Positions 3,001-13,893 of a stretch of 14,648 nt of DNA are shown here, in pieces. The stretch's first letter is position 1; each line of letters starts with the position of its first letter. Origin of the DNA: Thermoplasmata archaeon (GTDB lineage: Archaea > Thermoplasmatota > Thermoplasmata > UBA184); contig JAKAZU010000019.1 of the NCBI GenBank assembly GCA_021826525.1, positions 1 to 14,648 of the forward strand, written 5' to 3'. The translations under genes and the position numbers were made by a program. The notes beneath the pieces are model-generated. The model searched no databases. It saw nothing but the letters and a program-made list of their open reading frames with translations, and had not been told where the DNA came from.

Positions 3001-4001
3001 GGGTTCGAAAACCCGGGGCAGATACTGGGGGAGTGAACCGCCCAGGCGTAGGCGTAGCTGCCCGTCCCGTCCGTGATCCCGGTCGCCGAGACGGTGACCG
3101 ACTGACCCGCATCGATGGTGATCGAGCTGCTGGTGGGGGAGCCCACTCCCACATAGAAGTCTATCGTCGGCGTCTGCGTGAACGCGGAGTAGAGGTCCAT
3201 GCCGGCCGAGGCCGTGCCCGCGGTGCTCCCGCCGTTGTCGGTGATGGTGACCGAGACGGCGGTCGCGAGGTTCCCCGGGGGCAAGGTCGGCGTGCAGGTG
3301 AGCGTCGAAGTGTTGACGATGGTACAGCCCATGCCGTTCGCCTGGAACCAGCTGAAACTATACGTGCCGGTCCCGCCGCTTCCGGTCGCCGTGAAGACGA
3401 CGGTCTGGCCGGCGTCGACGATCGCCGGGTTCGGCGAGATGGTGGCGCAGATGACGCCGCCCGCGCCGTTTCTGGGAGTACAGGATGGGCTAGGAGGGGG
3501 CGGCGCCGCACCGGCGGAAGCCGCCGCCGAATCGCGGGCTGCGGAAGCCGCGGAGACGCTCGCCGAGTGCGAGTTGGAGGAAGCCGCGGCCACCGAGGGT
3601 CCCGACAGGGAACTCGCCGCGACCGGCGCGCTCGCAGCGCTCGAAGAAGAAGGAGAGACCGCCCCGCTCGGGGACACGGTGACCGTGATCGGAGCGGAGG
3701 TCGCGGTCGTCGTCGCGGCGCTATTCGATGCCGAAGCCGCCGCGGAGGAGGAGGATGCAGAAGAACTCGGACTGGAAAGGATCAGGATGCCGGTGCTGAA
3801 CGCGGCGAGCGGACTGGTCATCCCGCTCGCTCCGACGGTCCCCGGTGTCGCGATCGGGACCGCGGTCGCCTGGACCGCATATCCCCCGGGCCCGCCGCTC
3901 GACGGCAGGACCGTGGCTACGGCCGGGGCTATCGCGAAGCCCACCAACGCAATCAGCCCTACGACGAGTACCCACCATGTGCGCGAGCGGTCGGCCTTCA
4001 T
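1..4001 (-). CDS. Giant secreted Ig/PKD-like repeat surface protein (C-terminus outside window)
   Basis: I checked this frame codon by codon. It is open from the ATG at 4001 to the left edge with no stop, giving 1333 visible residues, so the protein is partial. It starts with a signal peptide: basic MKADRSR, hydrophobic WWVLVVGLIALVGFAIAP, then an Ala-rich cleavage region near residue 29. A Ser/Ala/Thr-rich stalk covers about residues 76-165. Tandem beta-rich domains follow, each opening with a D-x-G-Q-like motif; the Asp is at residues 196, 297, 411, 532, 636, 753, 864, 971, 1089 and 1305, with a degenerate YVYYGNSV version near 1208. Many domains carry Cys pairs. The composition is rich in Ser, Thr, Gly and Val, as in exported archaeal adhesin or S-layer-type proteins. 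Binding or structural work at the cell surface is inferred; no enzyme motif is visible. A TATA-like box lies just upstream and there is no Shine-Dalgarno sequence. Confidence 0.9.
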   Translation of the reverse strand, partial: MKADRSRTWWVLVVGLIALVGFAIAPAVATVLPSSGGPGGYAVQATAVPIATPGTVGASGMTSPLAAFSTGILILSSPSSSASSSSAAASASNSAATTTATSAPITVTVSPSGAVSPSSSSAASAPVAASSLSGPSVAAASSNSHSASVSAASAARDSAAASAGAAPPPPSPSCTPRNGAGGVICATISPNPAIVDAGQTVVFTATGSGGTGTYSFSWFQANGMGCTIVNTSTLTCTPTLPPGNLATAVSVTITDNGGSTAGTASAGMDLYSAFTQTPTIDFYVGVGSPTSSSITIDAGQSVTVSATGITDGTGSYAYAWAVHSPSICPGFSNPGSVSSFTYTSTTATNPTPGTLLDTCAFDVTVTDLTDTGYPTGAASPQPTVSNTSSSISIYPTLGTAGTPSVVSANIDVGQSATAVSSTLPTTANIGGAGSNPSATVSYYWFYSTGAGYFAATSSQCVTFDGSWSSGGTVSCVVPSNIATGTYTFEVRLVDTSTTSSAGITTSGASGAVTVHPTLSTPTLSPSATQTLDLGQSVGFTVSWSGGAPDYTANLYYVTTLPCSNTGTFVEGASGLTGSPYSFLSYPPSPIGTYYFCATITDSASTAVTTTSSPTTVVVNPALATAAAPTVVNAYIDHGQIETAATDTLPASIGGSGTVTYYWYVSYNSGAYALATSTQCAIPSGTASNSLVVNCVVGGSVATGTYTYEIVMTDTATTPVTTTSTGSGTVTVNAALAASSAPTVNGASSNINLDVNQQLTVSSTLSSGGTSLIHWTWYVNINSGGYGVSTLCGTNSGSSAPSTTINCVIAASTLTTGDHYVFELQVTDSASVPEGPLASSASPVVTVTAALTAPTLSPSGAQSADQGQSISFTVSWSGGTPDYTVTLYTYSTSTCTGGSVVSTLGTATGVSGTTYTFSGITFTKASYNVCASVTDSATPTVTLSTSSATTLTVNYPLVAPTPTVSPSPYYLDVGQTYNVASVTTPALSSFGSGSVTLTWLAASTEGGAYSEGLAAALCATPIVVGASSSTTYYCASIAGASTGTYYFEIELTDNNITIPYSVSSSPQSENVVVNPTLTVSSPTTTVTAIDANQATGTIALTLTRPSTGTSPYGWLVNYSFDGVSYSGMTGVSGCDGSSMGSSETCYITNSVLTASLLSAHSGGTLYLTLAVTDSATHPATAISSPLTLPIDAALTAGTPTYSTPFAYVYYGNSVTFSSLTSGGASGSDSYVWTLDSFPGCGSFSTPETLPAQSSGTCTPTSGAGTYSISYTVTDSNNNTVTSSTLNFIIYSTPMASEPTPNNSVLDVGQSYTFSTTASGGDGSYTTYTWSESSS

Positions 4002-4362: not shown

Positions 4363-5295
4363 GTGAGCGAAGGTTCTCCGACCGTCGGGCCATCGCGCCC
4401 TGCCCGACCCTCCCGCGTCAGTCCCGATCGGGCGAAGCCGGATCCCTCGCGGAAGCGGACCGAGCGGGACGAGCCCACCGACCCGGCCGGGCCTCCGCCG
4501 ATGTACCCTCGCTCGATCGGTGCCGCCGCCCCGCCGGGACCCGACGTCTACGAGGTCTTCGTCCGGATCCGTTCCCGCGTCTCGATCGGCGGACGGCTCT
4601 TCGCGCTGTTTGCGGAGGCCAACGTGGATGTCCTGGGCATCTTCGGCCAGGTCGATGACGACCGCCGTAACGGCAATCTCATCCTCTATGCCGACTATGC
4701 CCAATCGAAACGCGAGCCCCTCGCGTTCCTCGATCTCCTCCGCCGGCAGGAGTACGTGGTCGACGCCCGACTCGCCTACAAGGGCCGCCTCTTCCTCGAG
4801 GAGATGGCGTTCCCTCCGACCAGCGACGGCGCGTATCGGGTGCTCATCTTCCCGGTCGAGTGGTGGTCCTCTCTCGTGAGCGGGCTGGTCCATCAGTACG
4901 GTACCGCCGCCGGTTCGATCCTGCACGAGCAGGGGCTCAACGCGGGCCGGGCCCAGGTCCACCACGTGGTGGCCCGCGTTCCCTCGGTCGACCGCGCGCT
5001 CTTCCTCGCAACGCTGCGCGCGGCCGGACGAGCGAGCGGGTGGGGCCTCTTCGAGATCGGCGAGGAAGGGACCCCCGACGGGCCCGAGATCTTTCGGATC
5101 GCGGTCCGCGAAGGGCCGTGGGTCCGCATGAGTCCGTTCTCCCTGGAAGGATGCCAGTTCACGGTCGGTTTCCTGCGCGGAGCGCTGCAAGAGATCTGCC
5201 GGACCGATCTGGTCGTTCGCGGCCTGACGTACGATCGCGGGGAGTTGCGATTCGAGCTCGTCGGCGTCGAGCCGAATCCCTCCGCGCCCGGCTGA
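4363..5295 (+). CDS. ACT-like + V4R-like domain protein (probable ligand sensor)
   Basis: 310 residues from a GTG start supported by a TATA box 28 nt upstream. Residues 1-60 are a Pro/Arg/Ser-rich disordered tail. Residues about 63-145 look like an ACT domain (VFVRIRSRVSIGGRLFALF, then VDVLGIFGQVDDD and ILYADYA), a fold that binds small ligands and often mediates allostery. Residues about 160-302 resemble V4R / 4-vinyl-reductase domains: a YGTAAGSIL-type helix, SGWGLFEI, and near the end GCQFTVGFLRGALQ with Cys264 where the family often has one. No DNA-binding or catalytic domain is visible, so the protein probably senses a small molecule and acts on a partner. It is divergent from the surface protein gene and convergent with the KaiC-like gene 40 bp away. 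The ACT call rests on pattern only; the V4R call is somewhat firmer. Confidence 0.75.
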   Translation: MSEGSPTVGPSRPARPSRVSPDRAKPDPSRKRTERDEPTDPAGPPPMYPRSIGAAAPPGPDVYEVFVRIRSRVSIGGRLFALFAEANVDVLGIFGQVDDDRRNGNLILYADYAQSKREPLAFLDLLRRQEYVVDARLAYKGRLFLEEMAFPPTSDGAYRVLIFPVEWWSSLVSGLVHQYGTAAGSILHEQGLNAGRAQVHHVVARVPSVDRALFLATLRAAGRASGWGLFEIGEEGTPDGPEIFRIAVREGPWVRMSPFSLEGCQFTVGFLRGALQEICRTDLVVRGLTYDRGELRFELVGVEPNPSAPG

Positions 5296-8834: not shown

Positions 8835-9112
8835 CGCGGACGGGCGTCGGGCAACCGCCCGAGGGGGATCGACCGACTCGAGCGCGCGACCCGCCGGATA
8901 CGCTCCAACCCAACCCGTATCCCCACTCTAACGACCGTCTTCGCTCCGCCCGAAATGGTGACCGGCACGGGCTGAACCCCTACGTTCGGCCTCTTCCGAG
9001 GGCGATCCTACGTGCCTTCATTCGACCCGACGCAGGGCCGTCCGCCCAACGGGGACCAGGGACAGGCCCCCCGCCTTCCCGTTTAGAGCCGTTCTGACCG
9101 TTCGTTCGCCTC
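8835..9112. other. Intergenic stretch, no gene recognised
   Basis: No frame here has family motifs or a convincing promoter-plus-start arrangement; the open frames are Arg/Pro-rich shadows. Near 9079-9089 there is a weak TATA-like CCCGTTTAGAG about 27 nt before the start of the first hairpin element. It would be a candidate promoter if that element is transcribed rightward. A GTTCGTTCG run at about 9100-9108 already belongs to the repeat zone that follows. Confidence 0.35.
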
Positions 9113-9243
9113 CGCGTTCGCGTTCGCGTTCGCGTTCGGTGCCCCCCGTTCGCGGTAAGGCATCTAACCGTGCTGTTCAGGCTTCAACCCCCCTACGGGG
9201 GGGTTGGGGATTCAGCCGAACGAACGAACAAACGAACGAACAC
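9113..9243 (+). repeat. Hairpin element, copy 1 (direct repeat of 13691-13821)
   Basis: The left arm is a GTTCGC-type hexamer tract (9113-9138). The conserved core is 9150-9218. Its first 40 bases differ from copy 2 at four sites, and its last 15 (TTGGGGATTCAGCCG) are identical. In the middle CAACCCCCC (9185-9193) and GGGGGGTTG form a strong stem around a tiny loop. The right arm is two CGAACGAAC blocks separated by AAA. Open frames crossing it translate to low-complexity Glu-Arg-Thr-Asn peptides, so I do not treat it as coding. It could be a structured RNA, a protein-binding DNA element or a mobile-repeat remnant. Confidence 0.75.
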
Positions 9244-9292
9244 CCCCCCTCACCCCCCGAACGAACGCACGAACGAACGGGCGAACGAACGC
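9219..9292. repeat. CGAA-type tetranucleotide tract 1
   Basis: CGAACGAAC blocks recur with three-base spacers (AAA, GCA, GGG), interrupted by a C-rich run at 9241-9257. The stretch 9270-9292 is an exact copy of a 23-base unit: CGAACGAAC, GGG, CGAACGAAC, GC. It overlaps the right arm of hairpin element copy 1. Confidence 0.85.
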
Positions 9293-9465
9293 CGATCTAT
9301 CGACCCGTTTTGCCCGCTCCGAGGGCCCGGCACACCCGGCGGGCGAACCGTCCCAACGCACCGAACGCTCTGACGAGGAATCGACCGACGAAGCGCAGGA
9401 ATCGCCCGACGAAACGCCTTCCACAGCGCACCCAGAGAGCGGTTCGATACCACCGCACGACCCCC

Positions 9466-9548
9466 CGAACGCACGCACCGAACGAACGAACGGGCGAACG
9501 AACGCGCCGAACGAACGAACGAACGGGCGAACGAACGCACCGAACGAA
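9466..9548. repeat. CGAA-type tetranucleotide tract 2
   Basis: About 80 bp of CGAAC blocks. It includes two exact copies (9483-9505 and 9516-9538) of the same 23-base unit seen in tract 1 and in hairpin element copy 2. It lies about 220 bp beyond tract 1 and has no core hairpin of its own. Confidence 0.85.
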
Positions 9549-10257
9549 GGCTTTGAATTTGAACCGGCCCGGGCCGCCCGTGTGAATCGAAGCCTAAGCC
9601 TCCAGGGAAGGACTGGTTGAATCGAAACTCCGCGGAGGACCTCTCGGAGCCGGTCGGTCCCGGGCCCCGGGGGCTCCGGTCCACGAGATTCTGACGAAGC
9701 GCTTCGGCTACAACCTCACCGCCGTCGTCCCTGAGATGTTCGAGGACGGCACCGCCCGAGCTCTTCCCAACGGCCGCTCTGAGTCGCCGGGCTTCTCGTC
9801 GCTCTCCTCGTACTTGGGCAGAACGTCATCCCCCTTTCCCACTGGCGGCCGCTTCCCTCGGCTCGATGACATCATGGACCGAGTGCTGTCCAATGGACGG
9901 GCCGCCCGCCTTCGCCGGCTTCGGGTAGCTATGTCCCGGGGGGGCATGCGCGGGAACGCCCACCGACGTGCGTTGCCGGCCCATGGACCGTTCCCGGCTT
10001 CCCGCACCGTCCGCCGGCTTCCGGACGGGGAAATCGCCCGGCAGGGCGCCGGCAGTCTCGGCGCACGATCGTACGTCGCTCGAGCCTCGCCGGAAGCCGT
10101 CGCCGATCGATCGAGGGAGAGCGGATGTCGTCGGGCGCCTCGCTCGCGGTCGAACTTGCGCGATCCGGGCCTGCGCCCTTCCCGCCCCGGACCTCCGTTC
10201 CGACGCCGCGGACCTGCATCGGCCCTCGGCGGCGTCGACTCCGCCGAGCACGCGACC
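9549..10257. other. Long gene-poor stretch before the VOC gene
   Basis: About 700 bp with no gene I can support. A long plus-strand frame from 9736 joins the VOC gene but its first 185 residues are Arg/Pro/Ser-rich with no motif, and the TATA box at 10258 places the true start at 10291. A short piece at about 9679-9760 (VHEILTKRFGYNLTAVV in the plus frame) reads more like protein than its surroundings and may be a gene remnant. I see no RNA gene. Confidence 0.4.
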
Positions 10258-10268
10258 CTAGTTATACG
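10258..10268 (+). promoter_or_regulatory. TATA-like box for the first VOC gene (leaderless)
   Basis: TAGTTATACGC is centred about 27 nt before ATG 10291, so the transcript would begin at the start codon. It sets the start at 10291 despite the longer open frame upstream. Confidence 0.65.
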
Positions 10269-10290
10269 CCAGTACCCTCACGAGTCGCAC

Positions 10291-10689
10291 ATGGACGCTA
10301 CGGTCGAAGGGCTCGAAGCGGTGACCGTCCACGTGCGCGACATCCACCAGGCGCGAAAGTTCTACGGCGAGGTGCTCGGGCTCAAGGAACTCCATTTCGA
10401 CGGGACCGCGGGCTGGGCGGTGTTCGCGATCCCCGGCGTCCGCACCACCCTTCGAATGCACGTGTACGACCCTGAGGAGGGGGGACGCGAACCGGGGACC
10501 GTCTCAGGGATCGTGTTCTCCCACCCGGACCCCGTCGCGGCCTGTGTGGAGATCGCCCGACGAGGGGGAACCATCACGGATCCTCCCCACACGATCCGCC
10601 GTCCCGGATTCACCACCACGTTATCGGTAATCGCCGACCCCGATGGAAACGAGTTCGTGCTCCGCTCGCCTCCGACGCCGGTCCAGTAG
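10291..10689 (+). CDS. VOC (glyoxalase/bleomycin-resistance-like) family protein
   Basis: 132 residues, the usual size for a single-chain VOC protein. Two beta-alpha-beta-beta-beta repeats are visible. The first is EAVTVHVRDIHQARKFYGEV with His14 in a typical metal-ligand place, followed by VLGLKEL. The second contains GIVFSHPDPVAACVEIARRG and ends in VIADPDGNEFVLRSP with Glu121, the usual last metal ligand. Such proteins act as glyoxalases, dioxygenases, isomerases or drug-binding proteins; the substrate cannot be read from sequence. It has its own leaderless promoter. About 250 bp separate it from the SnoaL-like gene, so it is probably a separate transcript at the head of the VOC/SnoaL/DinB cluster. 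It is not a close copy of the second VOC protein at 12356. Confidence 0.88.
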   Translation: MDATVEGLEAVTVHVRDIHQARKFYGEVLGLKELHFDGTAGWAVFAIPGVRTTLRMHVYDPEEGGREPGTVSGIVFSHPDPVAACVEIARRGGTITDPPHTIRRPGFTTTLSVIADPDGNEFVLRSPPTPVQ

Positions 10690-10907
10690 CCGTTCCCGGG
10701 CGGCTCACCGCTTCGGGACCGCCCATTCGTGTTGCCGCAGAAAGTTCGGACAGGCATCTAGGGCCCCTCCTCGTCGGGTGCTCGACCCTGGGGCTGGGGG
10801 GAAGGGCGGAATTCGCATCTCGAATCAAATGGGTCCTCGGGTGGGTCCACGGGTCAGCAACGCCCGGGCCCAAACTTCGGAGAAGCTTTGCCATCGACCG
10901 ACGCGGG

Positions 10908-10917
10908 GCTATGTACC
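10908..10917 (+). promoter_or_regulatory. TATA-like box for the SnoaL-DinB pair
   Basis: GCTATGTACC is centred about 27 nt before ATG 10939. It lies inside an alternative N-terminal extension beginning at ATG 10888, which makes that longer start unlikely. Confidence 0.5.
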
Positions 10918-10938
10918 CTCTTCGCCTCACGGCTCGAC

Positions 10939-11292
10939 ATGAGCTCGAATACGCAGCTGGTCGAAGCTCACATGGGGGCGGCGCCCGCGAAGGCCGCCGA
11001 GTTCCTCGCCGACGACTTTGAATGGATCGAGTGGGCCGACGGAGTTCCACCCGGTGGAGCGCGGACAAGGGGGAAGGCCGCGTTTGTTCAGAACTACGGC
11101 GACGATGATCTTCGGGACGACATCCATCGAGTCATCGAAGCGGGAAACGTCGTGGTGGTTGAGGGCGTAGCTCACGTCACGAAGAAGGACGGTCGGAAGT
11201 TCAACGTTCAGTTTTGCAACATCTTCGAACTCGAGAACGGCAAGATCACTCGAAAGTCGTCCTACGGCGCCCTGATCAAGGAGTCCGCGTGA
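10939..11292 (+). CDS. SnoaL-like / NTF2-fold small protein
   Basis: 117 residues. Features of the cone-shaped NTF2/SnoaL fold are visible: an N-terminal helix with FLADDFEWIEW, a GGARTRGKAAFVQNY segment resembling the usual 'G-x-x-G-K-x-A-I' loop, then alternating strands VIEAGNVVVVEGVAH and NVQFCNIFELENGKITRKSSY. The F-E-L-E-N-G-K-I motif is typical of this family. Members are ketosteroid-isomerase-like enzymes, polyketide cyclases or plain ligand-binding proteins; the active function here is unknown. ATG 10939 is chosen because of the TATA box 27 nt upstream. Its TGA stop overlaps the GTG start of the DinB gene, so the two are probably co-transcribed and translationally coupled. Confidence 0.85.
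   Translation: MSSNTQLVEAHMGAAPAKAAEFLADDFEWIEWADGVPPGGARTRGKAAFVQNYGDDDLRDDIHRVIEAGNVVVVEGVAHVTKKDGRKFNVQFCNIFELENGKITRKSSYGALIKESA
11278..11283 (+). promoter_or_regulatory. Shine-Dalgarno AAGGAG deciding the first DinB start
   Basis: AAGGAG lies 5 nt before GTG 11289, inside the end of the SnoaL-like gene. It favours this GTG over ATG 11316, which has no such site. The resulting N-terminus puts the conserved Trp at residue 20, exactly as in the second DinB protein. Confidence 0.7.
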
Positions 11293-11849
11293 ACGTGGGT
11301 CCGCCGGGACCACCGATGACCTCGGAGCTCGAGTCGATCCGGAGTTGGTTCGCGTACCTGGCCGCCGCGCGCCGCGGTTACCTCGAGACCCTCGCGAAGC
11401 TGCCCGTCGAGGAGCTCGCACGCGACCGGGGTGCGTCCCACCCCACTCTCCTCGACATTTTCGCGCACTCTCAGGGTGCCCTGTACTTCTGGATGAAGAG
11501 CTGCGCGAAGTTCGAGTTCCCACCGCAGCCAGGGGATCCAGACGCTCCCCCTAGTATCGCGGCTCTCAGGACGGACGAGACGTACATCCAGACTCAAATC
11601 CAGAGGATCATGGCGGAACTGACCGAGGCCGACCTCGATCGCACGGTTTTCCGGGAGGAGGGAAGGGGCTCACCCCACGATTGTAACATCCCGATCCGCG
11701 AGGTGCTTTGGCACTTGGTTGAGGAGGAACTCCAGCACCGCGGGGAGCTCAACGCCCTCCTCTGGCAAATCGATGTCGACGCCCCGGTCCTCAGTTGGAT
11801 CGATTGGGGGCACGATGTGGGCCGGATCCGGGATTCTCCCGCAAAGTGA
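11289..11849 (+). CDS. DinB/YfiT-like four-helix-bundle protein, paralogue 1
   Basis: 186 residues from GTG 11289, which overlaps the SnoaL stop (GTGA). The DinB-like pattern is clear: ARRGYLETLAKLP, a DRGASHPTLLDIFAH helix with His60, and near the end VLWHLVEEELQHRGEL with His142 and His150. DinB-fold proteins are metal-binding four-helix bundles; some are thiol-dependent transferases or hydrolases for small molecules such as bacillithiol- or mycothiol-linked substrates, and many are uncharacterised. The usual third metal His (H-x-x-x-H) reads Glu146 here. It is a paralogue of the protein at 12759: the DRGAS block and the WHxVEEELQHRGELNAL block are shared, followed by Q-x-DVDAP. It is the second gene of a SnoaL-DinB operon. 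Confidence 0.87.
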   Translation: MNVGPPGPPMTSELESIRSWFAYLAAARRGYLETLAKLPVEELARDRGASHPTLLDIFAHSQGALYFWMKSCAKFEFPPQPGDPDAPPSIAALRTDETYIQTQIQRIMAELTEADLDRTVFREEGRGSPHDCNIPIREVLWHLVEEELQHRGELNALLWQIDVDAPVLSWIDWGHDVGRIRDSPAK

Positions 11850-12320
11850 TCGTATCAGCGTAGCAGGGCCACCGAGAGGGGTGTTGTCCGGAAGACGCAA
11901 CGACCCCCTTCGGGACATGGTTCTTCGGTAGCTCTCTCGCGGAGACCTACCGCGCGTCACGAAGGACTGTCCGCTCTGCGGACTTGATGCCGAGGCCCGC
12001 ACTTACGACGGACATCCGGGGTTCGGTTTCTAATGGCGGACCCGCCCGCCCTAGGGCCGCGACGCGAGTGCTCCTATCTTGCCCACCTAGCAGCTCTCCT
12101 CCTCACAACTCTAATTGGGTCTTCCGGAATCTTCGGGGATCCCCGAGGAGATGGGCCGGATGAGGGGATTGCCCATTGGCGCGGTCGTGATGGAAGGGCG
12201 CGAGTGGGAATCTATCACCCTCCCCCGGGACCCCCTCGTTCCACTCCAGGGCGGCTCCCCCGCCCTCTCGCTTGGGCACGGAACTAATACTTGGACTCCA
12301 CGCCCGACAACCCCGGAAGT
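11850..12320. other. Intergenic stretch with a possible zinc-ribbon gene remnant
   Basis: About 470 bp between the two DinB operons with no full gene. A short plus-strand frame at 11932-12033 reads LSRGDLPRVTK, then DCPLCGLDAEARTYDGHP, GFGF and a stop. It looks protein-like but follows an in-frame TAG at 11929-11931 and has no ATG, GTG or TTG start, so it is best read as a fragment. An AT-rich spot near 12108-12117 (CTCTAATTGG) could be a stray promoter. Other frames look like shadows. Confidence 0.4.
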
Positions 12321-12332
12321 ACCCTTTAACTG
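12321..12332 (+). promoter_or_regulatory. TATA-like box for the VOC-DinB pair (leaderless)
   Basis: ACCCTTTAACTG is centred about 29 nt before ATG 12356, consistent with a leaderless transcript for the second VOC gene. Confidence 0.55.
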
Positions 12333-12355
12333 GCGAGCGCCGGTAGCCGTGCCCG

Positions 12356-12754
12356 ATGATCGACCATGTGAACGCTCTCGCCCTCACCGTGCGCGATGTC
12401 AAGAAGTGCGCCGAGTTCTACCGGGACAAGGTCGGCCTCAAGGTCCAGATGATGGACGACGAGGAGGCGTACCTGTCGTTTTCCCAGAAGGGGTCTCCGG
12501 TGTTGGCGATTATCGGGGCCCAGGGATTGGCGAAGGAGCTCCCGCCCGAGCGGATCCGGGCGGACGAAAGTCCGCTGGTGCGCAATTACATCGCAGTGTT
12601 TGTGGAGGACGCGGACCGGGAGTACGAAACGCTGCGGGCGAAGGGAGTCAAGTTCCTGCAGCCCCCCGCCACTCGTCCCAGCGGTCAGCGGTTCGCGTTC
12701 TTCGAAGACCCGGAAGGGAATCTCTGGGAGATCTCCCACTTCCCGAAGGAGTGA
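12356..12754 (+). CDS. VOC (glyoxalase-like) family protein, second copy
   Basis: 132 residues. The family pattern is good: HVNALALTVRDVKKCAEFYR, DKVGLKV, then the second module NYIAVFVEDADREYETLRAKG and a C-terminal FFEDPEGNLWEISHF with Glu125 as the usual metal ligand. The first-strand metal position is Leu rather than His or Gln (ALALTV), so the metal site may be incomplete or shared across a dimer. The two VOC proteins of the cluster diverge strongly outside these motifs, so they are probably not a recent duplication. The gene starts with a leaderless promoter and ends 4 nt before the second DinB gene, mirroring the SnoaL-DinB arrangement upstream. The substrate is unknown. Confidence 0.88.
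   Translation: MIDHVNALALTVRDVKKCAEFYRDKVGLKVQMMDDEEAYLSFSQKGSPVLAIIGAQGLAKELPPERIRADESPLVRNYIAVFVEDADREYETLRAKGVKFLQPPATRPSGQRFAFFEDPEGNLWEISHFPKE
12746..12751 (+). promoter_or_regulatory. Shine-Dalgarno AAGGAG for the second DinB gene
   Basis: AAGGAG lies 7 nt before ATG 12759 and overlaps the end of the VOC gene. The same hexamer precedes the first DinB gene, so both internal operon genes use a Shine-Dalgarno sequence while the leading genes look leaderless. Confidence 0.7.
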
Positions 12755-12758
12755 GACC

Positions 12759-13286
12759 ATGGCGCCGAAGACCACGAAGGTGGACGAGACCCAGTTGGCG
12801 CGGGCGTGGATCGATTGGTTGGTCGACACCCGGCGGGACTACCTCGACGCTCTGCTTCGGCTACCCCGGAAGGAGCGCCTTCGCGACCGGGGCGCGTCGT
12901 TTCCGTCGATGCAGGACATCTTCCTCCACATCCTCGATAACAACGCATGGTGGTTTGACAGCGTCATCAACGGACGGCAGGAGTCACATCACGAGATCAA
13001 GGGGTCGCTGAGCGACGGCGAGTTGCGACGTCAGGATCGTCGGATCGCTCGGTCGAGTCGTCGCCTCGCGAGGTCCTTGACTCCGGCCCGCTTGAATCGG
13101 AGGTTCGTCGTCCGCGGCACTCAGGGCGATGGCACGCCGTTCGAGATGCGGATGAACCTTCGCACGATCATCTGGCACATGGTCGAGGAAGAACTCCAGC
13201 ACCGCGGAGAGCTCAATGCGCTCTTCTGGCAGCAGGACGTGGACGCACCGACGCGCGCCTGGTTCAGCAGCGCGTTGGCCGGCTGA
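12759..13286 (+). CDS. DinB/YfiT-like four-helix-bundle protein, paralogue 2
   Basis: 175 residues. It begins MAPKTTKVDETQLARAWIDW, aligning with paralogue 1 at Trp20, then RRDYLDALLRLP and the DRGASFPSMQDIFLH helix with His57. Near the C-terminus it has IIWHMVEEELQHRGEL with His140 and His148, and Glu144 where many DinB proteins have a metal His. The middle (about 75-115) is Arg/Ser-rich and diverges most from paralogue 1. Function is probably a metal-dependent small-molecule transferase or hydrolase, by family only. It follows the VOC gene by 4 nt and has its own Shine-Dalgarno sequence, so co-transcription is likely. Confidence 0.87.
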   Translation: MAPKTTKVDETQLARAWIDWLVDTRRDYLDALLRLPRKERLRDRGASFPSMQDIFLHILDNNAWWFDSVINGRQESHHEIKGSLSDGELRRQDRRIARSSRRLARSLTPARLNRRFVVRGTQGDGTPFEMRMNLRTIIWHMVEEELQHRGELNALFWQQDVDAPTRAWFSSALAG

Positions 13287-13690
13287 GGCCGTAGCGCCGG
13301 ATCCGGACGAAGGCGGTACGGACCCGAGGAGCCTCCTCGCTCGCGGTGGGCTCAGTCGCACGATTTGGCTGCGGACGCACGACCGCCCTGGGCTCGGGCG
13401 TCACATACTGACGCGTCGCCCGCGGGGTGCCCCTACTGCGCCTTCGCCCGTCCTTATGGGGGCAGTTCGGCATGGTTCGAGAAGCGACGAGAACGGCGCG
13501 GAGGGAGACAGCCAACGAGAGAACCTCGGCAATCCCGGGGTGGGGGAAGCTCCGTGGGAAGGTCGTGATCGTAACCGTCCCGCCTTCTCGATGAGGAGTT
13601 ACGAGACCTCCTCGATCTGCCGAAAGTCGTCGCGCGCGTCGAAGGGGGTATCGAGCCGACAGCGAGGGTAGGGAGGTACCCCTCTCTCTT
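13287..13690. other. Gene-poor stretch downstream of the second DinB gene
   Basis: About 400 bp without a supportable gene. A plus-strand frame from 13365 contains GCPYCAFARPYGGSSAWFEK near 13425-13484, a zinc-finger-like piece in otherwise low-complexity sequence; it may be chance or a remnant. A small hairpin GGGTA / TACCC lies near 13667-13682 just before the second hairpin element. No T-rich terminator is visible. Confidence 0.35.
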
Positions 13691-13821
13691 GCGTTCAGCG
13701 TTCGTTCGCTCGGTGTCTCTGGCCGGTCGCGGTAGGGTGTCTAACCGTGCTGTGCAGGCTTCAACCGCCCCTGCGGGGGAGTTGGGGATTCAGCCGGACG
13801 AACGAACGGGCGAACGAACGC
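13691..13821 (+). repeat. Hairpin element, copy 2 (direct repeat of 9113-9243)
   Basis: Same layout and orientation as copy 1. The left arm is CGTTCGTTCGC (13699-13709). The conserved core is 13727-13796. In it CAAC (13762-13765) pairs with GTTG (13781-13784) around an inner CCCC/GGGG stem. The right arm is two CGAACGAAC blocks separated by GGG (13799-13821), identical to the 23-base units of the tracts near copy 1. Left and right arms are complementary over 10 bases, so the whole element could fold into a long stem enclosing the core hairpin. Copy 2 lies 4.58 kb from copy 1, on the other side of the VOC/SnoaL/DinB cluster. Confidence 0.75.
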
Positions 13822-13893
13822 ACGGTTCTGTAACGTTATCGAGCCGAAACAGGTGCATTCCCAGACCCCTTGGTGGACCTCGTCCTCGCACGA

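What the first reader, a model, noticed from the sequence alone, without database searches (positions are those of the whole stretch)
9113..13821. Two direct copies of an undescribed hairpin element bracket the VOC/SnoaL/DinB cluster
A roughly 130-bp element occurs at 9113-9243 and 13691-13821 in the same orientation. Both copies have GTTCG-rich left arms, a 69-70 base core with few differences, a G/C-rich hairpin inside a conserved CAAC/GTTG pair, and CGAAC-rich right arms. Everything between them is the five-gene small-molecule cluster plus gene-poor DNA. This could be a structured RNA family, a mobile-element end, or a recombination site that helps move or amplify the cluster. I do not recognise it as tRNA, rRNA, RNase P, SRP RNA or CRISPR.
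Basis: partly seen in the sequence, partly recalled or inferred. Interest (0 to 1): 0.72.

Follow-up and report, generated by a model that had tools for sequence, protein, structure and literature searches.

The report
Dispersed hairpin repeat in Thermoplasmata archaea
The window carries two copies of a short DNA repeat that can fold back on itself; copies are scattered through a few related archaeal genomes and often sit where neighbouring DNA has been rearranged, but nothing ties the repeat to the genes it happens to bracket here.

Summary
In detail: a ~130-bp element lies at 9113-9243 and 13691-13821 in the same orientation, 84% identical. It matches no Rfam family. It is a dispersed, lineage-restricted repeat: ten copies are known, two here and eight in three related MAGs (3 of 103 genomes of the family; 3 of 400 of the class; strict E-values). 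Its parts: GTTCG-rich left arm, a conserved hairpin 1 (compensatory changes), a second hairpin of one of two unrelated types, CGAAC-rich right arm. The full T-shaped fold is not uniform: exact hairpin 1 is in the minimum-energy fold of 5 of 10 copies in every window tried, of W1 in one window. Copies with the same left flank have different right flanks and vice versa, with switches in or beside the element. No gene is common to the surroundings of all copies, so the VOC/SnoaL/DinB bracket looks coincidental. Best reading: a non-autonomous, MITE/foldback-like repeat serving as a rearrangement point. Transposase, target duplication and transcription are not shown; arm complementarity beats all shuffles in only 4 of 10 copies. 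A structure-recognised recombination site is not excluded, but attC boxes are absent in 10 of 10 copies.

The parts
9113..9243 (+). copy 1 (W1) of the element, class I
13691..13856 (+). copy 2 (W2), class I, with its right tail (homologous to L002 561-718)
8996..9098 (+). upstream block; the left flank of W1 is shared with copies L002b (77%) and L072 (84%) but not with W2
9099..9138 (+). left arm of W1, GTTCG-rich
9151..9172 (+). hairpin 1 of W1, CGCGGTAAGGCATCTAACCGTG
   Evidence: in the minimum-energy fold of the core and of one of three longer windows
9182..9209 (+). hairpin 2 of W1 (class I): 12-bp stem with a C(TACG)G loop and two G-U pairs
9217..9243 (+). right arm of W1, CGAAC-rich
13728..13749 (+). 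hairpin 1 of W2, CGCGGTAGGGTGTCTAACCGTG (pairing inferred from the alignment; its own fold prefers another register)
13759..13787 (+). hairpin 2 of W2 (class I), TGCG loop
9252..9487 (+). GAACG-rich module; two stretches of it (82% and 97% identical), in permuted order and joined to the right tail of the element, lie near the end of contig C182 of G033
9475..9995 (+). module lying on the other side of, and inverted relative to, the element in L071 (83-88%); carries a transposase C-terminal relic at about 9646-9789

Best explanation
A non-coding, dispersed, MITE- or foldback-like non-autonomous repeat of about 130-240 bp, so far confined to a few related Thermoplasmata. SHOWN: dispersed copies, comparative support for hairpin 1, two types of hairpin 2, restriction to one lineage, flanks that change in or beside the element. 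INFERRED: that a single strand (DNA or RNA) folds into a T in which tetranucleotide-rich arms close over two hairpins; that copies spread by a transposase acting in trans and/or by recombination between copies; and that this shuffled the accessory DNA around them. On this reading the bracketing of the five-gene cluster is incidental.
For: Ten copies, four in G001, one in G033, three in G042, two in the window. W2 and L002a share 167 columns at 86% and BLAST finds nothing else shared between their 500-nt flanks: a unit with two edges. W1, L002b and L072 share their left flank (72.7-84% pairwise) but not their right flanks; L072 and L074a share a right flank (485 columns, 83%) but not their left flanks; L070 and L074 are one orthologous locus (flanks 91% and 81%) with element and ORF between replaced; the transposase-relic module lies on opposite sides of W1 and L071. 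Hairpin 1: 91.3% of 80 cells paired against 32.5-37.5% in the six slid registers, 3 of 10 pairs changed on both sides. Present in 3 of 103 family genomes (matches of 35.9 bits or more), 3 of 106 of the order, 3 of 400 sampled from the class.
Against: No clear terminal inverted repeat or target duplication at the edges of W2 and L002a (longest shared direct word 6 and 4 nt, inverted 5 nt, not at the edges). No Y1 transposase in 3 of 3 host MAGs, which may be incomplete; other transposase and recombinase families were not searched there. The relatives of the nearby transposase relic show no element-like words in 10 of 12 loci; L126 has one GAACGAAC, L115 one GAACGAAC and one TCTAACC. The element (60-73% GC) is not AT-rich as MITEs typically are, and is about as GC-rich as the window (67%). 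Arms beat all 300 shuffles in 4 of 10 copies (W1, L002a, L002b, L072), tie in L071, fail in 5; other copies' arms match as well as own ones. Exact hairpin 1 is absent from the minimum-energy folds of W2, L002a and L002b and partial in L086. L070 has no recognisable right arm. No empty site was found.
Confidence: 0.55

Rival explanations
1. A structured RNA family (multi-copy small RNA or 5' leader), with the given strand transcribed.
For: Hairpin 2 of class I ends in C(TACG)G in W1 and L002a and C(TGCG)G in W2, UNCG loops (motif recalled); 4 of 6 class II-like copies (L002b, L072, L074a, L074b) end in GTAAN. Hairpin 1 has G-U in 5 of 8 copies at each of two positions, which is A-C on the other strand. 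By energy the given strand of the core is more stable in 7 of 7 TCTARCC-type copies and over 171 nt in 6 of 7. L074b differs from L002a at three places of hairpin 1, all keeping the pairing.
Against: By z-score the given strand is better in only 5 of 7 of those cores (not L002b, L071) and 6 of 7 long stretches (not L071); in the other three copies the complement is more stable in 3 of 3 cores and 2 of 3 long stretches, so no single sense strand fits all. z-scores are modest (W2 core -0.26). The exact hairpin 1 is in the minimum-energy fold of 5 of 10 copies throughout, and of W1 in one of three windows. Copies are related, so these are not independent trials. No Rfam match; no RNA data. Neighbouring genes differ, against a leader.
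Confidence: 0.2
2. A recombination site recognised as a folded strand, working like an integron attC or pdif-type site, at which flanking modules are exchanged.
For: In two separable exchanges (class I against class II right halves; the pair L072/L074a) left-hand homology ends at +3 to +5 and right-hand homology begins at +16 to +18, i.e. between the two hairpins. Toxin-antitoxin-like ORFs lie beside the L071 copy (by eye).
Against: RYYYAAC...GTTRRRY in attC arrangement: 0 of 10 copies. Only two such exchanges are visible; the many pairwise breakpoints are not independent, and homologous recombination between repeats could give them. Another switch (L070/L074b) falls at the left arm. Integron integrases and tyrosine recombinases were not searched for.
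Confidence: 0.12
3. A small conserved coding sequence, or the 5' end of HTH genes.
For: One frame is open through hairpin 1 in all 7 copies translated and reads FAVRYLTVL-like; in L074b it runs on into an ORF with a weak HTH match (HTH_24, E 0.0012, below cut-off).
Against: That frame stops soon after in L071, L072 and W2; the three pairing-preserving changes of L074b are all non-synonymous in it; W2 has radical replacements. The W1 ORF in that frame (9170-9373) has no Pfam match.
Confidence: 0.04
4. Ordinary GC-rich simple repeats with chance palindromes and no unit of inheritance.
For: Arms are tetranucleotide arrays, and such arrays occur in 9 of 103 family genomes.
Against: The W1 core matches the G001 copy over its full 84 nt at 94% (E 9.4e-31), and hairpin 1 matches across genomes at E down to 8.4e-12 (model partly built from those copies).
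Confidence: 0.05

Closest known systems
Prokaryotic MITEs (review PMC10969869; section 2.1 and passages seen)
   Same: Short (<500 bp), multi-copy, foldable; MITEs can flank other DNA (a figure legend there names integrons flanked by MITEs)
   Different: No clear TIR or target duplication, not AT-rich, no autonomous partner found, two internal hairpins
Foldback (FB) elements of animals and plants (recalled, not looked up)
   Same: Inverted arms built of short tandem subrepeats, association with rearrangements
   Different: Archaeal, far smaller, internal hairpins
REP/BIME palindromes and their RAYT transposases (recalled; PMC3733652 and PMC3116915 seen in the listing only)
   Same: Palindromic repeats, sometimes in pairs
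   Different: No Y1 transposase in 3 of 3 host MAGs, few copies; the GTAG/CGTC tag was not tested
Integron attC sites, including archaeal ones (PMC9668308, passages seen)
   Same: Foldable sites bordering accessory genes; flank exchange
   Different: No attC boxes in 10 of 10 copies; not one site per gene
T-shaped viral terminal repeats such as those of parvoviruses (recalled)
   Same: Stem with tetranucleotide repeats topped by two small hairpins
   Different: Lies inside contigs with cellular-type genes; stem repeats vary between copies; replication genes not searched. A likeness of shape only

Membership tests
MITE | short, multi-copy, dispersed, with edges | tested here: met
MITE | terminal inverted repeats | tested here: inconclusive
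   arms are inverted tetranucleotide arrays, significant in 4 of 10 copies; outer edges of W2 and L002a show only 5-nt inverted matches
MITE | target site duplication (lost with age) | tested here: not met
   two copies tested
MITE | autonomous partner with the same ends | tested here: inconclusive
   Y1 absent in 3 of 3 MAGs; nearby transposase family lacks the words in 10 of 12 loci; other families not searched
attC site | RYYYAAC ... GTTRRRY boxes at the base of the folded site (motif recalled) | tested here: not met
   0 of 10 copies
attC site | integron integrase in the genome | not tested
REP/RAYT | Y1 transposase in the genome | tested here: not met
   0 of 3 MAGs; controls rang in 5 of 14
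Rfam family | score at or above the gathering cut-off | tested here: not met
   window at E<=1 and 7 loci holding the other eight copies
structured RNA | compensatory changes beyond chance | tested here: met
   hairpin 1 only: 3 of 10 pairs, 2 of 500 shuffles reach it; 8 related sequences and a structure read from them
structured RNA | stable fold in single copies | tested here: inconclusive
structured RNA | transcript | not testable with these tools
   no RNA data

The most novel reading that the evidence does not exclude
An archaeal recombination site read as a folded strand: its left half (arm plus hairpin 1) and right half (hairpin 2 plus arm) are exchangeable at the junction between the hairpins, so that accessory modules are shuffled in Thermoplasmata without an integron.
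Probability: 0.1. Interest if true: 0.75.

Novelty: new variant of a known kind. Interest (0 to 1): 0.34.

Why it matters
A small foldable repeat at which flanking DNA changes between copies could explain part of the gene turnover in accessory regions of these uncultured archaea, and gives a concrete sequence model to look for in better assemblies.

Tried and rejected
Arm covariation: I first thought that arms of different sequence (GTTC, GTGC, GTCC) always keep a complementary partner arm. The matrix test did not bear that out: 4 of 10 copies beat all shuffles, one ties, and cross-matches between copies are as good. A uniform T fold: checked; exact hairpin 1 is in the minimum-energy fold in all three windows for L071, L072, L074a, L074b and L070, in one of three for W1, partly (4 of 10 pairs) for L086, in none for W2, L002a, L002b.

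Viral origin: the hairpin 1 pattern gave 3 hits in viral contigs; all are one coding stretch (DIGKISNRV) in long ORFs, a chance match. The class I pattern and the right tail gave 0. Plasmids: no match for 98 nt of W1. The phage collection was not searched.

L001 (Pseudomonas) came with the pattern; it was not examined and is taken as chance. L003 (G002) has an 18-nt exact match inside an MFS-like gene fragment downstream of a DinB gene; not counted as a copy.

R1 at E<=1 rang in 83 of 103 family genomes, but after the seven matches of 35.9-61.5 bits the best is 24.1; those were dropped as noise. Hairpin 1 pattern with up to 3 mismatches: 4 of 103 genomes; G085 lies in a coding-looking stretch and was dropped. 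GTAA-hairpin pattern: 5 places in 3 genomes; G028 lies in a coding-looking stretch without arms (by eye; one search had failed to show it) and was dropped; G042:C176 gave the copy L086; the reversed-pattern control rang once, in G042. Tetranucleotide pattern: 9 of 103 genomes, G001 and eight others; of those eight only G062 (L092) has complementary arms of these units.

Empty site: the gene right of copy 2 has orthologues in 2 of 103 genomes, G007 (68%) and in part G062; G007 is not collinear with the window, so no empty site could be read.
Full report
WHAT IS THERE. The window holds two copies of one element in the same orientation, 9113-9243 (W1) and 13691-13821 (W2), 83.7% identical over 129 columns. 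A pattern taken from them occurs exactly twice, with 0.00 expected in shuffles. There is no tRNA and no Rfam family (the only listed match, E 0.58, lies at 4635-4702, far below its cut-off); 98 nt of W1 match no plasmid. No whole genome is held for the window.

WHERE ELSE IT OCCURS. One scan of genome contigs with the pattern gave three stretches; the useful one is a Thermoplasmata MAG, YF1.bin107 (L002, genome G001). An 84-nt query from W1 matches it end to end at 94% (E 9.4e-31), and the same contig carries a second, different copy. In the 103 genomes of that family a hairpin 1 pattern with up to 3 mismatches rang in 4: G001, G033 and G042 carry the element; the fourth, G085, lies in a coding-looking stretch and was dropped. 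A covariance model of the left flank plus hairpin 1 (R1, built on 8 copies) gave seven matches of 35.9 bits or more, all in these three genomes, and rang in 3 of 106 genomes of the order at E<=0.005 and 3 of 400 sampled from the class at E<=0.003, the same three. The searches over 40 genomes use stricter filters that lose weak matches. A hairpin 2 pattern added a tenth copy, L086. The ten: W1, W2; L002a, L002b, L071, L070 (G001); L072 (G033); L074a, L074b, L086 (G042). The eight outside the window lie on contigs of 3.2-10.1 kb, so counts are lower bounds. A right tail without hairpins, joined to the module of window 9252-9487 in permuted order, lies near a contig end in G033.

ANATOMY. From 5' to 3': a left arm rich in GTTCG (GTGC in L074b and part of L002b, GTCC in L070, L074a and L086); hairpin 1; a linker; hairpin 2; a right arm of GAAC, GCAC or GGAC units. 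Hairpin 1 is CGCGGTAAGGYATCTAACCGTG with an A-A mismatch in 6 of 8 aligned copies. On 8 copies the named stem has 91.3% of 80 cells paired, against 32.5-37.5% when slid by 1-3 columns; 3 pairs change on both sides (2 of 500 shuffles reach this), 3 never vary. The structure was read from these same sequences and L074a is the main outlier, so this is moderate support. Hairpin 2 has two types. Class I (W1, W2, L002a): CTTCAACC...GTTGGGG with TACG, TGCG, TACG loops; in W1 it is closed further by GCTG/CAGC. Class II (L002b, L071, L072, L074b; L074a and L086 similar): CGCGCG-rich, with GTAAN loops in L002b, L072, L074a, L074b; in L086 the loop has the opposite orientation relative to hairpin 1.

HOW SOLID THE FOLD IS. 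z-scores of the core on the given strand run from -3.35 (L072) to -0.26 (W2), of 171 nt from -4.91 (L002a) to +0.62 (L070). In the 7 copies of the TCTARCC type the given strand has the lower energy in 7 of 7 cores and 6 of 7 long stretches, but the better z-score in 5 of 7 and 6 of 7; in the other 3 copies the complement has the lower energy in 3 of 3 cores and 2 of 3 long stretches. The exact hairpin 1 is in the minimum-energy fold in all three windows tried for 5 of 10 copies, in one of three for W1, partly for L086, in none for W2, L002a and L002b, which prefer other registers over the same letters. Arms: own arms beat all 300 mononucleotide shuffles in 4 of 10 copies, tie in 1, fail in 5, and other copies' arms match as well. 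So the T shape is an inference that single copies support unevenly.

FLANKS CHANGE AT THE ELEMENT. Relative to an anchor after hairpin 1: W1, L002b and L072 share their left flank (W1/L002b 77% over 196 columns, W1/L072 84% over 138, L002b/L072 73% over 209), but homology of W1 to the class II copies stops at +3 to +5 and the right flanks differ. L072 and L074a share 485 columns at 83% from +18/+16 to the right, while their left flanks show no match. L070 and L074b lie at one orthologous place (143 columns at 91% on the left, 999 at 81% further right), with different element versions and ORFs between; the L074 ORF has weak HTH matches below cut-off, that of L070 none. W2 and L002a share only the unit from -55 to +110. 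A module right of W1 lies left of, and inverted to, L071; it holds the relic of a transposase C-terminus whose intact relatives occur in other family genomes. Two separable exchanges thus fall between the two hairpins; the L070/L074b switch falls at the left arm.

NEIGHBOURS. No gene is common to all copies: the five-gene cluster and a convergent membrane-protein-like ORF here; acylphosphatase-like genes (PF00708) in L002 and L074; a 423-aa protein without Pfam match downstream of L074a and, truncated, of L072 (2 of 103 family genomes; 8 proteins including itself in the large database; no Pfam); toxin-antitoxin-like ORFs beside L071 (by eye). Pairs occur in L002 (direct, about 1.9 kb apart) and L074 (divergent, about 0.4 kb apart) too, enclosing other DNA. 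I therefore take the bracketing here as incidental.

MECHANISM. I commit to a non-autonomous foldback/MITE-like repeat that has spread within this lineage and whose copies are places of rearrangement (0.55). Transposase, insertion chemistry, fold in the cell and transcription are inferred or unknown. Against it: no target duplication or sharp TIR in the two copies tested, no Y1 transposase in 3 of 3 MAGs, composition like the surroundings (60-73% against 67% GC). A structured RNA (0.20, lowered from 0.24) is the main rival; a structure-recognised recombination site (0.12) is the most novel, with attC boxes absent in 10 of 10 copies.

LITERATURE. Searches of the held PMC library for foldback or MITE with Thermoplasmata or archaea, Lutacidiplasmatales and archaeal integrons showed no description of this element in the titles and abstract beginnings listed; most papers were not opened. 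The Lutacidiplasmatales genome paper PMC9287336 has no word beginning with repeat, hairpin, transpos or mobile in its main text; that the hosts belong to that order is my guess from recall, not a result. MITE features are from section 2.1 and passages of PMC10969869, archaeal integrons from passages of PMC9668308.

Noticed in passing
window about 9646-9789; L107 389-1640: Relic of the C-terminus of a transposase-like protein whose intact relatives carry an N-terminal stretch that looks like a SWIM zinc finger (by eye)
   Followed up: partly
L070 1852-2547 against L074 3373-3942: Orthologous locus upstream of a surface-protein-like ORF where element plus small ORF are replaced by unrelated versions in two genomes
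   Followed up: partly
window 11709-11786 and 13173-13250: The two DinB-family genes of the cluster share an 82% identical 3' stretch, suggesting a duplication
   Followed up: no
L003 (G002) 3898-3942, - strand: 18-nt exact match to the class I core inside an MFS-like gene fragment downstream of a DinB gene in the same archaeal family; may be chance or a captured piece
   Followed up: partly
L002 about 1660-2135: Stretch between two near-palindromes (CCACGGTTGAAACCGTGG and CCACCGATTTCAATCGGTGG), like IS200/IS605 ends from recall, although no Y1 transposase was found in that MAG
   Followed up: partly
L092 (G062) about 1404-1540: Long inverted GGCGTACGGACGG / CCGTCCGTACGCC arms around about 95 nt; possibly an unrelated element of the same design
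   Followed up: partly
L072 1230-1400 and L074 2640-2810, - strand: Palindrome-rich 140-160-nt stretch between the element and the 423-aa ORF, conserved between two genomes (by eye)
   Followed up: no
W1, W2, L002a, L002b, L071, L072, L074b: One reading frame is open through hairpin 1 in all seven copies translated (FAVRYLTVL-like)
   Followed up: partly
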